A stretch of DNA of 64,000 nucleotides from an uncultured Bryobacteraceae bacterium (lineage in GTDB: Bacteria; Acidobacteriota; Terriglobia; Bryobacterales; Bryobacteraceae): contig CALJAM010000010.1 in assembly GCA_938027685.1 (NCBI GenBank), positions 1 to 64,000 on the forward strand. The letters run 5' to 3'. Made by a program: the position numbers and the translations under genes. Shown here piece by piece: positions 351-51,604 of this stretch. Under the pieces are notes generated by a model. That model was given only the letters and a program-made list of their open reading frames with translations, was not told where the DNA came from and did no database searches. Each line of letters starts with the position of its first letter. Position 1 is the first letter of the stretch.

Positions 351-1034
351 TTACGCGACCTCCGGCTTGGGGAACCACGGATCTGAATCCTCCAGCTGCC
401 CAAGGTAGATGTAACGCAGTTCGTCCCTTGCAACCATGGGTGCAAACATAGCACGCCACTCGTTCACGTAAAACCGCCCGCCCAAATATCCCTTGTATTC
501 GCGAATCCTGCCCGCCATTTGAGCCGCGCCTTCCCGGCCAACGATATCCGACAGGCAGATCTCGCGAGTGCGATTGGCGGACAGCCGCACCTCATACGAT
601 ATGTCTTTTCCACCGGCCCGCAGTTTATACGGAATTCCGGGGTGAGGACCGTACCACTCATCCCCCGGGCTTAGCCGCTGCCCATCGCGGCCCACAGGAC
701 GCCCGCTCAAAACATGACCGTCCAAATCGAATTCGAGAGATCCGTCATATTCGCCGGCATAAAAATAATCAATCTCGCCAGCCACCGGCACAATTACCTG
801 GTGCCATTCGTTGATATAAAAGACGCCGCCGAGCGTTTCCGAGTATTCTTCCTTAACTGCGTTAACCATCTCAACTAACCGCCGGTGCTCCGCCGTCGAT
901 AGATACACACGCTCGGCCTTGCCAATCCGATAAACGAGAGACACCACTTGCTCGCCCCGGTGCCAGCGAATCGAATACTTTGCGTCTTTCGGTGCCAAGC
1001 GAGGGCAGTTGCCAGGAAACTGTGGGAACGGCAT
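351..1034 (-). CDS. Hypothetical protein made of two copies of a ~100-aa repeat module shared with the neighbouring helicase C-terminus
   Basis: ORF track 351..1097; start trimmed to MPFPQFPGN (ATG 1034), overlapping the upstream stop (TAATG). Units end in GGVFYINEWHQVIVPV...YFYAGEY and GGRFYVNEWRAMFAPM...YIYLGQL. Confidence 0.75.
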   Translation of the reverse strand: MPFPQFPGNCPRLAPKDAKYSIRWHRGEQVVSLVYRIGKAERVYLSTAEHRRLVEMVNAVKEEYSETLGGVFYINEWHQVIVPVAGEIDYFYAGEYDGSLEFDLDGHVLSGRPVGRDGQRLSPGDEWYGPHPGIPYKLRAGGKDISYEVRLSANRTREICLSDIVGREGAAQMAGRIREYKGYLGGRFYVNEWRAMFAPMVARDELRYIYLGQLEDSDPWFPKPEVA

Positions 1035-1738
1035 TACGGAACCTCCTTTGCAAACCATCTCGCGTAATCGATCTTCCCGACGTAAACGGGATCCCAATCA
1101 TCCTCGCACCACCGGCCAGGCACTGGCCGCTTTGTCAGCACTAAACCAAACGGGTTCACGATGAATCTCACCGCGCCCCAGCGCCTACATCGCCGAAGCG
1201 CCGCTATCAAACGCGCATCCTGATACGGCGCGTACTGAATCAGATCTCGTTCCAGTCCCCGGTGGACGAAGTAGAGCCGCCCGGTCTTCGACAAATGGTA
1301 CGGTACGCCCACATACGGCAGTTCCCACGGGTCGCCGCACCCCAACCCGTGATCGTCGTACAGACCCACACGCTTACCTTCGTTCTCGGGATCGAGAAGA
1401 TCCCAGGTGCCCAGAAGGTCCCCGACAAAGTACCTGCGGCGGTCGTGGACCGCTGAAGGTACGATCACCTGGCCCCACTCGTTGATCGTGAAGGATCCCC
1501 CTTCCATGCCATTGAATTCAAGCTGCACCTTCGCGATCGCCTCGGCCAGCTCCTGAACGGCCTGCGTTTCTTCGAACCAGTACTCCCGGGTCTCGTTGCC
1601 CCGTCTCAGCTCAGCCATCGGCCAAAATTTTCCCAGATCTCCTCGAAAACGGAGATGGAAAACGCTCGCGGTACCCGGAATTCGATCGTATCGTCCAGTC
1701 CAGGTTAGTGGTCGTGACCTGATGAAGCGACACGGCAT
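1034..1738 (-). CDS. Hypothetical protein, paralogous two-repeat architecture to the 351-1034 product
   Basis: ORF 1034..1789; start MPCRFIRSRP (ATG 1738) is 5 nt after the helicase stop. Units contain GGSFTINEWGQVIVPS...YFVGDL and VRFIVNPFGLVLTKRP...VYVGKI. Confidence 0.75.
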   Translation of the reverse strand: MPCRFIRSRPLTWTGRYDRIPGTASVFHLRFRGDLGKFWPMAELRRGNETREYWFEETQAVQELAEAIAKVQLEFNGMEGGSFTINEWGQVIVPSAVHDRRRYFVGDLLGTWDLLDPENEGKRVGLYDDHGLGCGDPWELPYVGVPYHLSKTGRLYFVHRGLERDLIQYAPYQDARLIAALRRCRRWGAVRFIVNPFGLVLTKRPVPGRWCEDDWDPVYVGKIDYARWFAKEVP

Positions 1739-1743
1739 GCCGA

Positions 1744-3954
1744 CTACTCGGGAAACTCGAGCCCTTCCTTCAGCGTAGTGAGGAACCAAAGTCGTCCGTC
1801 CCTCCGAAATACCGCATCTCCTCGCGAATCGACTTCGAAGTGGGTAATGGCCTGCCCAGGCGCCTGAACGGATTTCAGCACCTGAAGTAACGTCTCGGCA
1901 TCGCGCCCCTTTGCCTTGTTGCAGGCTTCGTCACCCACCAGGGCAAAGACCTCGCCGCGCGGAATTTTCTTGACAATCACGCCCCCCCGTTTCTGGCTGT
2001 ACCGCAACTTCTGGATGGGACCCTGCAGCGCAAATGGATAGGGATCGCCAGGCTTCGCGGTCTTGAGCCATTCGGCGCGGTCTACCGCCGAGCCGGCTTG
2101 CTCATACATGTCGGCAGGTACGAGCGGAGAGTCCAGGGCCGTCACGAACCGCGTTTCCCAATCGTCTCCGGCTAGAACCCGCACCAGGCAGTAGTGCTTC
2201 ACCGGCGTGACGTAGAAGCGTCCGGGACGCCCGAGGACACGCCGGACGGCATCGTAGACCGGCTTTGGGTTCGCTATCAAACGATCCCGTTGATCACGGA
2301 TGTTACCCTGAGAGTCGCAGGAATAGATTTCACCTTCGAGCCGTCCCGGATAGAGGTCGCCCGGTTTCAGATCCGAAATTCTTAGTTCGTAATCCGGCGG
2401 GAGGCACACACGAGGAGGACCAGGTTGGAGTTCAGGGTCCCCTTCAAGATCCCACCGGTAGTACAGGTTGCGCTCGGCACCCGTAATCCTGCTCCAGTCT
2501 TCCCGTTCGTATATCAACTCGTCAACGGTGTCACGAATGTAGAGTATGTGAATGGTCGGGTTTTTTTCTTCCCCGACTGCGGTCCTGTGCCGACGCAGAA
2601 CACGGCCCATGCTTTGGATCCTTTGGCGCACCGAGGTCGAAGAGGCCACGATGATCGCAAGGTCAACCGCAGGCACGTTGAACCCCTCGATGAGCGATTT
2701 TGCCGACACCATGACCCGCGCAATGCCCCTTCGAAAAAGATCTAGACTGATCTCGCGCAGCTCCTGGGGGAGTTTACTATGCTCCAAGACCGCAGGATAT
2801 CCCCCAACCTGCAGCCTAACGAAAAGTTCGTTCACCGAATCCACGCTTTCGTGAAAGAGAATCGCCATCGACTCGGGGTTCGGGTAAAGCTCGCGCCTCA
2901 GGATCTCTAGAACCGCTTTATAACGAGCTTCCGCCCCGTACAACAACATCTTCCGCTCGGCCGTGTCTGCCAGGAAGCGTTGGGCAGCCTGGGAGACGTC
3001 CTGCGCGCCGCTTTGGGCAGCACGTTGTACCCAGGAGAAAAAGCGGCCTCCCGAGCCTGCCTTGGGCGGGGCATGATTCTGCAAGTAAAGGCGGGATTCA
3101 GAGATAGATCTGGAGAGACGCTCGTAAGAGGCACGCTCCGACGGGGTCAAGTCTAGGCCGTAGTGCTTGATCGTGTAAGGCGGAACGATGCCCATCTGCA
3201 GAGCTTCTAACAGCGTTAGCTCGAAGAACACATCTCCCAGTTCTTTCCCGAGAAGGGATGCTCCGAAATCGCCGGAAGAGCGGTCCTCAGTGTCCTCTCG
3301 CTCCGGCGTTGCGGACAATCCGAGCGAAGCCATCCTAGGAGTTTTCAATACGCGTGACATCTGCGGTGCACCGGCGCGGTGGCATTCGTCCGCTATCAAA
3401 AGCAGTCGGTCGCCAAGGCCCTGCTTGGCTACCATTTCGGGAAGTGTAGCCCGAGCCGTATCGAGGACTGCGATCAAAAAACGGCAGCGGTCCGAGAAGG
3501 AGTCCTGAAATCCGCCTCCTAAGCGGCCAAGCGCGCTCAGTGGGAGGTTCGATTGTCGAGCGACCTGCTCATACCACTGATTCATGAGCACGATCGTGGG
3601 TACGACCACCGCCACCCGCAGCTCGCGGCAGTCTCGGTTCTGAAGGGCTTCTGCGATAGCCAAGCCCAAAATGGTTTTACCAGCCCCCGTGACGACTTTA
3701 ACCGTTCCCCTCCGGCCATTCTTGAACCACGCGTCCCGACACCGAACTTGCCATTCCGACAATTGAATACCTGGCGTGAGATTCCAAGGCTCGGAGAGAT
3801 CCATTAGCTTCGGAATGCTGGGGTCGATCATGACTCGTGATTCTTCTTCACGAGGCTCTTGGTCCGCGATCCATTCCAAAAGCCGCAATTGATGTAGAAG
3901 CAGTCGCTGCTCAGCTGTAAACCTGATGGCCAGCGGATCCCTTCTCGCCTGCAA
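1744..3954 (-). CDS. SF2 DEAD/DEAH-type (SSL2/XPB-like) helicase with C-terminal repeat modules
   Basis: Walker A VVTGAGKT, DEAH-like IADECH, motif III LGLSATPER, motif VI QSMGRVLRR. C-terminal ~215 aa lie outside the helicase core. Confidence 0.9.
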   Translation of the reverse strand: MQARRDPLAIRFTAEQRLLLHQLRLLEWIADQEPREEESRVMIDPSIPKLMDLSEPWNLTPGIQLSEWQVRCRDAWFKNGRRGTVKVVTGAGKTILGLAIAEALQNRDCRELRVAVVVPTIVLMNQWYEQVARQSNLPLSALGRLGGGFQDSFSDRCRFLIAVLDTARATLPEMVAKQGLGDRLLLIADECHRAGAPQMSRVLKTPRMASLGLSATPEREDTEDRSSGDFGASLLGKELGDVFFELTLLEALQMGIVPPYTIKHYGLDLTPSERASYERLSRSISESRLYLQNHAPPKAGSGGRFFSWVQRAAQSGAQDVSQAAQRFLADTAERKMLLYGAEARYKAVLEILRRELYPNPESMAILFHESVDSVNELFVRLQVGGYPAVLEHSKLPQELREISLDLFRRGIARVMVSAKSLIEGFNVPAVDLAIIVASSTSVRQRIQSMGRVLRRHRTAVGEEKNPTIHILYIRDTVDELIYEREDWSRITGAERNLYYRWDLEGDPELQPGPPRVCLPPDYELRISDLKPGDLYPGRLEGEIYSCDSQGNIRDQRDRLIANPKPVYDAVRRVLGRPGRFYVTPVKHYCLVRVLAGDDWETRFVTALDSPLVPADMYEQAGSAVDRAEWLKTAKPGDPYPFALQGPIQKLRYSQKRGGVIVKKIPRGEVFALVGDEACNKAKGRDAETLLQVLKSVQAPGQAITHFEVDSRGDAVFRRDGRLWFLTTLKEGLEFPE

Positions 3955-4751
3955 GGCTCACCCCTTATGACGTCGGCTTGTGTTCTTTTTACCCGTTCGA
4001 CCGTTTACCGCAATTTCCCTCCCCGCACCTGCACAATACGAACGTATACAAACCTGATTCCTTGGATGTCAACCAACCGCCCCTTCTCACCTCCAAGTCC
4101 TGACCTCTGGCCGTGGCTGGGCCGTCAGTGCCGCGACTTCACCCCAGCCGAGCGCACCCGCAGCCGCGTGCTCACCATCGGGGATGGTCACAGCCTCAGC
4201 CTTCAATCGCCGGGCGCCGCCACCGGCAATAGTTCGCGCCGCAAACCGGACTATCTCACGACACGACTGTCCGGGTCAGGCAACAAAAACGCCAACAACG
4301 CCCGGCGGGCCTCCCCCTCGGCCAAGCAAGACCCCCTGGAAGCACACGCCGCCACCGTAGATGACCCGCTGCGCCCCTTGCCACGCTCCACCTCGGCCGC
4401 CTGCTTCGCACCAAGGCTAAGCCGCCCCCACCCTACCCGGCGGTCAGGTCCCAGGAAAGCTCACCCAGCCCCCATTGGCATTCCGCGCGCACCGGTTGTC
4501 GAACAATCCCATCGCGCTCGTTAGCTGCGCAAGATGGGGCAAGATTCGCCGGGTACCAGGCAATTTTGTGCCGCGCCTGAAATGTCCTCCCCATGTCCTC
4601 TCCTTCACTGGAACGCACAGCCCTCACACCCATCGAGCCTGCCGAACATTTTTGCGCCACCCGAACTCAGAAATTTCTCGACCGCCTCATCGCAACTGGG
4701 GGATGGCCAGCCCTCTCCGGCCCCTCTACACCCTCGCCCGCCGCGCCCGTC

Positions 4752-50701: not shown

Positions 50702-51127
50702 TCACTGCCCGGCCTCGATCTTGGCCGTCATCAGTCCCACCTTGTCGATGCCGGCCCCCTTCGCGATGTCGATCGCCCGCGCCACGTACTGGAACTCCAG
50801 ATCGGGATCGCCCTTCACGAACACTACCCGCTCGGCACGCGTCTTGAAGATCTCTTCCAGCCGCCGGCCAAGGCGATTGAAATCGCTCGGCTCCTGGTTG
50901 ATCATCACCGAATGGTCCTTGTTGATCACGATCACCACCGTGCGCTGATCCGCCGCGTCCGCCTTCGAACCCGGCGGCGGCGGCTGCGGCACCAGCGTGT
51001 CCAGCCCATAAGGCGTCGTGGGCGTGATCACCATGAAGATGATCAACAGCACCAGCAGCACGTCAATGAACGGCACGACGTTGGGGTCGGCCACCGGGCC
51101 TTTGCCAGTACCGACTTGCATTCCCAT
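50702..51127 (-). CDS. exbD: ExbD/TolR biopolymer transport protein
   Basis: PNVVPFIDVLLVLLIIFMVITP; periplasmic domain. Confidence 0.93.
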   Translation of the reverse strand: MGMQVGTGKGPVADPNVVPFIDVLLVLLIIFMVITPTTPYGLDTLVPQPPPPGSKADAADQRTVVIVINKDHSVMINQEPSDFNRLGRRLEEIFKTRAERVVFVKGDPDLEFQYVARAIDIAKGAGIDKVGLMTAKIEAGQ

Positions 51128-51163: not shown

Positions 51164-51604
51164 TCACGGCGTCGCCGCCGCTGCCGCTCCCTTCTCCTTG
51201 ATCTGTTCCGTCAGTAGACCGATCTGATCCACTCCCGCCGAGCGCAGATTGTCCACCACTTCCACCACCCGCTCGTAGCGGGCCCGCGCGTCGCTGCGGA
51301 TGTAAACCATCTTGTCCAGCCGGTTCACCAAAAGGTCCTTCACCTTGCTGGGCAACTGGTCCGGGGGCATCTGAGTGGTGCCCAAAAACGTCCTCCCGTC
51401 GCGCGTCACCGCGATCAGAATGGCGTCATCCTTGTCGGCAGCCTGCATCGCGATCGGGTTGCGCGTCTTGACCATGTCCACGCTGATGCCCTTCGTCAAC
51501 ATCGGCGTCACCACCATGAAGATGATCAACAGCACCAGCATGACGTCCACCATGGGCACCACGTTCGGTGTGGATACCGGCGGGGGCATTTCCCTTCTTG
51601 CCAT
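51164..51604 (-). CDS. exbD: ExbD/TolR biopolymer transport protein, second copy
   Basis: PNVVPMVDVMLVLLIIFMVVTPML; trimmed to MARREMPPP. Confidence 0.93.
   Translation of the reverse strand: MARREMPPPVSTPNVVPMVDVMLVLLIIFMVVTPMLTKGISVDMVKTRNPIAMQAADKDDAILIAVTRDGRTFLGTTQMPPDQLPSKVKDLLVNRLDKMVYIRSDARARYERVVEVVDNLRSAGVDQIGLLTEQIKEKGAAAAATP

What the first reader, a model, noticed from the sequence alone, without database searches (positions are those of the whole stretch)
351..3954. Candidate undescribed helicase system: SF2 helicase and two downstream proteins built from one shared ~100-aa repeat module
Seen directly: the helicase C-terminus has two units and each small protein has two more, giving six copies across three adjacent genes. 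Each unit begins with a PGD-type motif in four of six copies (KPGDLYPGRLEGEIYSCDSQGN; KPGDPYPFALQGPIQKLRYSQKRGG; CGDPWELPYVGVPYHLSKTGR; SPGDEWYGPHPGIPYKLRAGGKD). A helical stretch follows, then a beta-rich end: GRFYVTPVKHYCLVRV, THFEVDSRGDAVFRR, GGSFTINEWGQVIVPS, VRFIVNPFGLVLTKR, GGVFYINEWHQVIVPV, GGRFYVNEWRAMFAPM, each followed by a Y/F-x-V/A/L-G/T-x-L-like strand. A motor fused to the module its partners are made of suggests co-assembly or shared ligand recognition. I do not recognise this architecture as a named defence system. Anti-phage or DNA-processing function is inference.
Basis: partly seen in the sequence, partly recalled or inferred. Interest (0 to 1): 0.85.

Follow-up and report, generated by a model that had tools for sequence, protein, structure and literature searches.

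The report
Helicase cassette built from shared modules
Three neighbouring bacterial genes, a DNA motor and two partner proteins built from the same undescribed repeat module, form a cassette found in many phyla and often sitting inside known anti-phage systems such as BREX, which points to an unnamed motor part of bacterial immunity.

Summary
Window 351-3954 (minus strand) encodes an SF2 helicase and two small proteins, and all six ~80-100 aa units are homologous. All 15 unit pairs give HHalign probabilities of 31-99%, against a null median of 0.2%. AlphaFold2 models of the helicase C-terminus and of gene 3 (pLDDT 92.8 and 90.8) show two beta3-alpha-beta3 units each. The small proteins match nothing in Pfam, NCBIfam, PADLOC or PDB sequences.

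The order helicase-g2-g3 is conserved in about 15 other genomes of at least seven phyla. A sister clade has the helicase plus one module protein, or the helicase alone. About half of the cassettes with usable context lie in or beside a recognised modification or restriction locus: complete BREX loci, type-I-like systems, Ssp phosphorothioation genes, a PbeA/CxC system, Shedu. The window's closest relative follows PglZ-BrxL. The window copy lies at a contig end, and its genome shows no PglZ or N6-MTase, so its own partner is unknown.

Best reading: a mobile, nuclease-less restriction-motor cassette whose six modules co-assemble on DNA. Sub-threshold Foldseek hits to sliding clamps are only a lead. 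Co-assembly and defence are inferred, not shown.

The parts
1744..3954 (-). SF2 helicase/translocase (736 aa); RecA-like core about aa 62-490 (DNA about 3771-2485), Walker A VTGAGKT, DECH box, motif VI QRIQSMGRVLR
   Evidence: Pfam ResIII 1e-18 and Helicase_C 9e-14; nearest curated families PADLOC PbeA 4e-53 and NCBIfam TIGR04095 3e-39 (far below its cut-off)
2134..2367 (-). Module unit helC1 (PGDLYPG...GRFYVTP...), helicase C-terminus
   Evidence: HHalign to helC2 96.7%, g2b 96.3%, g3b 97.0%; beta3-alpha-beta3 in AF2 model
1774..2055 (-). Module unit helC2 (PGDPYPF...HFEVDSRGDAVF...)
   Evidence: HHalign to helC1 96.7%, to the other units 49-73%; beta3-alpha-beta3 in AF2 model
1034..1789 (-). 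Gene 2, small two-unit module protein (likely ATG start at 1738)
   Evidence: orthologues directly downstream of the helicase in about 15 genomes; no Pfam/PADLOC/NCBIfam match
1403..1669 (-). Module unit g2a (GGSFTINEWGQVIVP)
   Evidence: HHalign to g3a 99.4%, g3b 97.0%
1064..1339 (-). Module unit g2b (CGDPWELPYVGVPYHL...VRFIVNPFGLVLTK...VYVGKID)
   Evidence: HHalign to g3b 98.7%, helC1 96.3%
351..1097 (-). Gene 3, small two-unit module protein (likely ATG start at 1034)
   Evidence: AF2 model pLDDT 90.8
747..980 (-). Module unit g3a (GGVFYINEWHQVIVP)
   Evidence: HHalign to g3b 97.7%, g2a 99.4%
393..671 (-). Module unit g3b (PGDEWYGPHPGIPYKL...GGRFYVNEWRAMFAP...YIYLGQLE)
   Evidence: HHalign to helC1 97.0%, g2b 98.7%, g3a 97.7%

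Best explanation
A horizontally mobile three-gene cassette made of a nuclease-less SF2 DNA motor of the PbeA/dnd_restrict_1 clade and two dedicated partners. The motor's C-terminal pair of beta3-alpha-beta3 modules and the two module pairs in the partners (2+2+2) co-assemble into one DNA-engaging particle that holds the translocase on DNA. The cassette serves as an auxiliary restriction or DNA-processing arm, combined with different host-marking systems (BREX methylation, type-I-like methylation, Ssp phosphorothioation), while any cleavage is supplied in trans (for example PglZ, PbeA, DUF2130) or by an occasional PLD-like fusion. Shown: the homology, the conserved cassette, the contexts and the predicted folds. 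Inferred: co-assembly, DNA tracking and defence. For the window copy the partner is unknown.
For: Six homologous units with controls. Same predicted unit topology in two separately modelled proteins. Helicase-g2-g3 order, mostly with short or overlapping junctions, in about 15 further genomes of Acidobacteriota, Planctomycetota, Chloroflexota, Actinomycetota, Verrucomicrobiota, Lentisphaerota, Bacillota, Gemmatimonadota. Helicase tree crosses phyla: the window pairs with a Planctomycete (98/91), as expected of transfer. Contexts: BrxA-BrxB-BrxC-[hel-g2-g3]-PglX-OLD/Ppl-like-...-PglZ-BrxL (L111/L112); PglZ-BrxL-[hel-g2-g3] (L009); BrxC-like-PglXI-[hel+one module protein]-PglZ-BrxL-like (L121/L122); type I MTase-AAA-S-like-[cassette]-DUF2130 (L116) and a second AAA/S-like example (L139); SspB-SspC divergent from hel+one (L128); cassette-ABC-151 aa-PbeA at 4e-228 (L120); Shedu SduA just downstream (L125). 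Gene 3 of the BREX-embedded copy is fused to a PLD-like MIT_C domain.
Against: No interaction or activity data exist. Roughly half of the cassettes with context have no recognised defence gene beside them (for example L118, L124, L113, L129, L130, L141). The window genome shows no PglZ and no N6_Mtase, so its copy may be standalone or its partner unassembled. A sister clade has the helicase with one or no module partner, so all six modules are not obligatory. The cassette has no nuclease. The defence-association count has no formal genome-wide background.
Confidence: 0.5

Rival explanations
1. A self-sufficient defence system: the module proteins sense foreign DNA or phage products and the helicase is the effector; co-location with BREX, Ssp or type I loci is only defence-island clustering.
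For: The window genome has no detectable PglZ or N6-MTase; several cassettes lack known partners; unrelated systems (Shedu, Pbe) also lie close.
Against: In L111 the cassette lies between BrxC and PglX on one strand, and in L116, L139 and L024 the gene just upstream overlaps the helicase start by 1-4 nt, which is operon integration rather than loose clustering. L009 and L121/L122 are also within BREX gene runs.
Confidence: 0.28
2. A DNA repair or genome-maintenance helicase module (XPB- or RadD-like) whose partners load or position it at damage; occurrence in defence islands is incidental.
For: Weak core similarity to XPB/Rad25 and RadD; some copies lie among ordinary genes.
Against: Very patchy distribution (about 0.3-1.4% of sampled genomes per phylum), cross-phylum transfer, and recurrent embedding in BREX, type-I-like and Ssp loci.
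Confidence: 0.12
3. The six segments are unrelated and the resemblance is chance.
For: Pairwise sequence comparison of the helicase C-terminus with g2/g3 is not significant.
Against: Profile comparison with controls, a small-protein-only profile hitting helicase C-termini, bridging archaeal and Mollicutes sequences matching both profiles, and the same predicted topology.
Confidence: 0.01

Closest known systems
PbeA (HKD nuclease-SF2 helicase of the CxC/DndE-linked PbeABCD systems) and NCBIfam dnd_restrict_1 (TIGR04095)
   Same: Closest curated families to the helicase core (PADLOC 4e-53 over aa 54-457; NCBIfam 3e-39); both linked to DNA-modification-based defence; a true PbeA (4e-228) is encoded beside one cassette.
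   Different: The window helicase lacks the nuclease-bearing N-terminal region (PbeA model positions before about 242 are unmatched), carries a C-terminal module pair, and has two module partners; TIGR04095 is far below its cut-off (135 vs 600 bits).
BREX helicases BrxHI and BrxHII (types 2, 3, 5, 6)
   Same: SF2 helicases that accompany BrxC, PglX and PglZ; the cassette occupies a comparable place in L111, L009 and L121/L122.
   Different: Different helicase subfamily (BrxHI/HII match 4e-5, 20 bits, against PbeA 179 bits). BrxHI is Ski2-like and BrxHII a RapA-like Swi2/Snf2 protein with Tudor and inactive REase domains (PMC12839542). In L111 and L009 the cassette co-occurs with BrxL, whereas that survey describes BrxHI and BrxHII as standing in for BrxL in types 2 and 3.
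SspFGH / SspE / DndFGH restriction modules
   Same: Restriction modules paired with phosphorothioate modification; SspFGH is also a three-gene module that paired with two different SspBCD sets (PMC8092258).
   Different: g2 and g3 match no PADLOC model, and no Ssp/Dnd restriction model was among the helicase matches shown; SspH and DndH are described as FtsK-like translocases, not this SF2 helicase.
DNA sliding clamps (DnaN, PCNA, 9-1-1)
   Same: Nearly all of the best 50 PDB Foldseek rows for the helicase C-terminus, and most for gene 3, are clamps; pseudo-two-fold beta-rich proteins with long helices, and 3 x 2 units recalls the 3 x 2 domains of heterotrimeric PCNA.
   Different: No match passes E 0.001 (best 0.01); TM-scores 0.10-0.25 and rmsd 14-20 A mean no real superposition; each unit has one helix where a clamp domain has two; no PDB sequence match.

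Membership tests
BREX system (as defined by PglZ + BrxC core) | PglZ-domain protein in the same locus | tested here: not met
   Window genome: none with PF08665 or with the PglZ model that rings in the L009 and L017 genomes; the locus is truncated at the contig end. Met in relatives L009, L111/L112, L121/L122.
BREX system (as defined by PglZ + BrxC core) | BrxC/PglY ATPase next to the locus | tested here: inconclusive
   Not in the assembled flank; sequence beyond the contig end is missing. Present beside the cassette in L111 (1582 bits) and, weakly (2e-10), in L122.
BrxHI/BrxHII helicase | Best match among helicase models is BrxHI/BrxHII | tested here: not met
   20 bits, E 4e-5, against 179 bits to PbeA
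PbeA / PbeABCD | HKD (PLD) nuclease domain N-terminal to the helicase | tested here: not met
   Match covers only helicase positions 242-619 of the PbeA model; only about 55 aa precede the window core; no PLD match in Pfam
dnd_restrict_1 (TIGR04095) | Score above curated cut-off | tested here: not met
   135 bits vs cut-off 600
DNA sliding clamp fold | Significant structural superposition on a clamp (TM above 0.5 or Foldseek E below 0.001) | tested here: not met
   Best E 0.01 and 0.058, TM at most 0.25; only the ranking favours clamps
Any described module or repeat family | Match to a curated Pfam, NCBIfam or PADLOC model, or a PDB sequence | tested here: not met
   no family shared by members; single-member matches only
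SspFGH restriction module | Match to the PADLOC Ssp restriction proteins | tested here: not met
   g2 and g3: no PADLOC match at E below 1; helicase best match is PbeA (25 of 39 rows shown)

The most novel reading that the evidence does not exclude
The three proteins form a heterotrimeric, six-module ring or partial ring around DNA, analogous to heterotrimeric PCNA or 9-1-1, with an SF2 translocase built into one subunit: a self-clamping immune motor that many modification-based defence systems have borrowed.
Probability: 0.15. Interest if true: 0.92.

Novelty: new variant of a known kind. Interest (0 to 1): 0.7.

Why it matters
It defines an undescribed protein module that appears as a domain of a DNA motor and as the whole body of its two partners, and shows one cassette moving between BREX, type-I-like, phosphorothioate and other defence loci. 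That makes it a candidate interchangeable motor arm, and may help with the open question of what the accessory helicases of BREX-like systems do. The complete BREX locus in L111/L112 and the two type-I-like loci give direct experimental entry points.

Tried and rejected
Chance resemblance: rejected by profile controls. Filing as BrxHI/HII, PbeA or dnd_restrict_1: rejected on defining features. Azaca (a three-gene system recalled from memory): the literature search gave no usable description and no such PADLOC model was among the matches shown. Plasmid collection: no tblastn match for the C-terminus or g2. Viral contigs: only generic helicases, so no evidence of phage carriage. Sliding-clamp fold: kept only as a lead because TM-scores are at random level. 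An attempt to build a DnaN profile for a sequence test found only one viral locus, so profile-to-clamp comparison was not done. Basic helix surfaces: mean net charge of the unit helices is only slightly positive (0.04-0.13 per residue), not informative. PglZ, N6-MTase and SspC in the window genome: none found; the SspC search also rang in no control genome and is uninformative.
Full report
WHAT IS THERE. The window is bases 1-64000 of contig 10 (112,753 bases) of a 3.93 Mb, 45-contig genome. The cassette lies at the very end of that contig, so nothing is known beyond 351 bases downstream of gene 3. It is on the minus strand and has lower G+C (0.58) than the rest of the window (about 0.65). About 0.8-1.2 kb separates it from the next plausible genes, after which the window carries ordinary metabolic genes. 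The genes are helicase 3954-1744, gene 2 (stop at 1034; likely ATG 1738) and gene 3 (stop at 351; likely ATG 1034), with a 5-nt gap and a TAATG overlap, i.e. one transcription unit by arrangement (inference).

THE SHARED MODULE IS REAL. Pairwise, genes 2 and 3 are clearly homologous (7e-12) but the helicase C-terminus is not visibly related to them. After collecting some 25 relatives of the helicase with this C-terminus from public genomes, I split each family into its units and compared profiles. All 15 pairs of the six units scored 31-99% HHalign probability, whereas 210 reversed or column-shuffled controls had median 0.2%, 99th percentile 4.5% and one outlier at 34.7%. So the weakest single pair (g2b-g3a, 31%) overlaps the extreme of the null, but every unit is tied to at least one other by a link at 96-99%. 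A profile built only from small proteins finds helicase C-termini in two other genomes (E 4e-6 and 1e-5). Module proteins beside related helicases in a Mollicutes and a Heimdallarchaeota MAG match both the small-protein and the helicase C-terminus profiles, acting as intermediates.

PREDICTED FOLD. AlphaFold2 with alignments gives confident models: gene 3 pLDDT 90.8/pTM 0.86, helicase C-terminus pLDDT 92.8/pTM 0.81. In both, each unit is three strands, one long helix, three strands. The PGD motif lies just before the first strand of four units. The conserved GG-x-F-x-(I/V)-N-E / GRFxVTP segment is the first strand after the helix.

FOLD SEARCH: A LEAD, NOT A RESULT. Foldseek against the PDB gives no hit below E 0.001 for either model. 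Yet sliding clamps (DnaN, PCNA, 9-1-1) dominate both top-50 lists: nearly all rows for the helicase C-terminus (best E 0.010, prob 0.33) and most for gene 3 (best E 0.058). Viral PCNAs appear among the best BFVD matches of gene 3, behind a LEF-3 at 4e-3. TM-scores are 0.10-0.25 with rmsd 14-20 A, so there is no superposition, and clamps are heavily represented in the PDB (about 55 distinct DnaN sequences). The arithmetic 3 proteins x 2 units recalls heterotrimeric PCNA, but a clamp domain has two helices where a unit has one. I therefore state the clamp idea only as the novel case.

THE CASSETTE IS CONSERVED. The order helicase-g2-g3 occurs in L008-L015, L017, L018, L021, L024, L032, L033 (L008, L010 and L011 are cut or split copies) and in further genomes found by whole-genome searches (L113, L139; L140 and L143 are short contigs). 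Members span Acidobacteriota, Planctomycetota, Chloroflexota, Actinomycetota, Verrucomicrobiota, Lentisphaerota, Bacillota and Gemmatimonadota. A well supported sister clade (100/99) has the helicase with one module protein (L016, L019, L022, L026, L029) or none (L007, L020, L023, L025, L027, L030, L036). The system is rare: 1 of 297, 4 of 291, 4 of 345, 1 of 251 and 2 of 248 genomes in five phylum samples, each count including the genome it started from (the first used g2 alone). In the helicase tree the window groups with a Planctomycete (L009; 98/91) and then an Acidobacterium (L008; 100/100), which argues for horizontal transfer.

CONTEXT. Of about 17 module-bearing loci with usable flanks, 8 have a recognised modification or restriction system at hand. 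(1) L111/L112 (Opitutales): BrxA, BrxB, BrxC (1582 bits), helicase, g2, g3, PglX (1252 bits), OLD/Ppl-like, Schlafen-like, PglZ (958 bits), BrxL (1001 bits) on one strand; its gene 3 carries a C-terminal PLD-like MIT_C domain (4e-39). (2) L009 (Gemmataceae, the window's sister): PglZ C-terminal part, BrxL, helicase, g2, g3. (3) L121/L122 (Pirellulaceae): BrxC-like (2e-10), PglXI-like MTase (6e-102), helicase, one module protein, PglZ, BrxL-like. (4, 5) L116 and L139: a large AAA protein, type-I S-like subunit and cassette; in L116 also a type I MTase and a downstream DUF2130. (6) L128: SspB and SspC divergent from helicase+one. (7) L120: cassette, ABC ATPase, 151-aa protein, PbeA. (8) L125: Shedu SduA just downstream. 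L115 has only a module fragment next to a BrxL-like gene. The remaining loci have no recognised partner. I had no means of computing a formal background, but three PglZ genes within about 12 kb of the cassette in 27 genomes of megabase size is far more than random placement would give.

THE WINDOW COPY. Its genome shows no PglZ with the Pfam model or with the PADLOC model that does detect PglZ in the two related genomes, and no N6_Mtase, a family found in 13 of 14 control genomes. Either it acts alone, or its partner is in unassembled sequence, or it uses another marker. The defence reading of this copy is by relationship only.

MECHANISM. The helicase core is a ResIII-Helicase_C SF2 motor nearest PbeA and dnd_restrict_1 with no nuclease of its own. 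From the duplicated module in motor and partners I infer hetero-assembly through like-like module contacts, giving a DNA-engaging collar that positions the translocase. From the contexts I infer that the particle is a restriction-side arm that works with whichever marking system is present, with cleavage done by a neighbour. These steps are inference.

COMPARISON WITH WHAT IS KNOWN. The 2026 BREX survey (PMC12839542) lists BrxHI, BrxHII and nuclease effectors, and the passages I read do not describe this cassette or a clamp ('clamp' occurs nowhere in its main text). The phosphorothioation reappraisal (PMC10853773) describes PbeA as an HKD nuclease-helicase, which this is not. SspFGH (PMC8092258) is the nearest functional analogy: a three-gene module that pairs with more than one SspBCD set. 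Only open-licence papers were searchable, so prior description elsewhere cannot be excluded.

VERDICT. A real, conserved, undescribed (to the extent searchable) three-gene cassette with a new protein module, repeatedly built into modification-based defence loci. Co-assembly and anti-phage function remain to be tested.

Noticed in passing
window 4091-4160 and genome contig C34:49934-50001 (L002 1501-1568): A 70-bp, 86% identical repeat upstream of the helicase recurs about 250 bases from the end of another contig of the same genome; possibly an intergenic repeat or island boundary.
   Followed up: partly
window 51021-51085 and 51504-51568: A 65-bp, 83% identical direct repeat pair.
   Followed up: no
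L017 11531-12124 (L111 gene 3, 425 aa): The BREX-embedded gene 3 carries a C-terminal PLD-like MIT_C domain (Pfam 4e-39), a natural fusion of the module with a PLD-fold domain.
   Followed up: partly
L116 and L139: A recurrent type-I-like locus with a ~1390-aa AAA protein (no PADLOC match), S-like subunit and this cassette in two unrelated genomes; the S-like protein also resembles MADS MAD5.
   Followed up: partly
L034 3-641 and L035 208-990: Module proteins encoded upstream of (not downstream from) divergent helicases in a Mollicutes and a Heimdallarchaeota MAG, overlapping the helicase start.
   Followed up: partly
L118 13406-14740, L124 4709-5908: AAA_14/DUF4143 ATPases (PADLOC candidate PDC-S01 for the first) lie near two Actinomycetota cassettes.
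   Followed up: no
L024 648-3466: Two proteins without any Pfam or PADLOC match (327 and 593 aa) precede the cassette, the second overlapping the helicase start by 1 nt.
   Followed up: no
L011 2934-3695: Gene 2 is split into two ORFs by an in-frame stop in this copy, possibly a pseudogene or assembly error.
   Followed up: no
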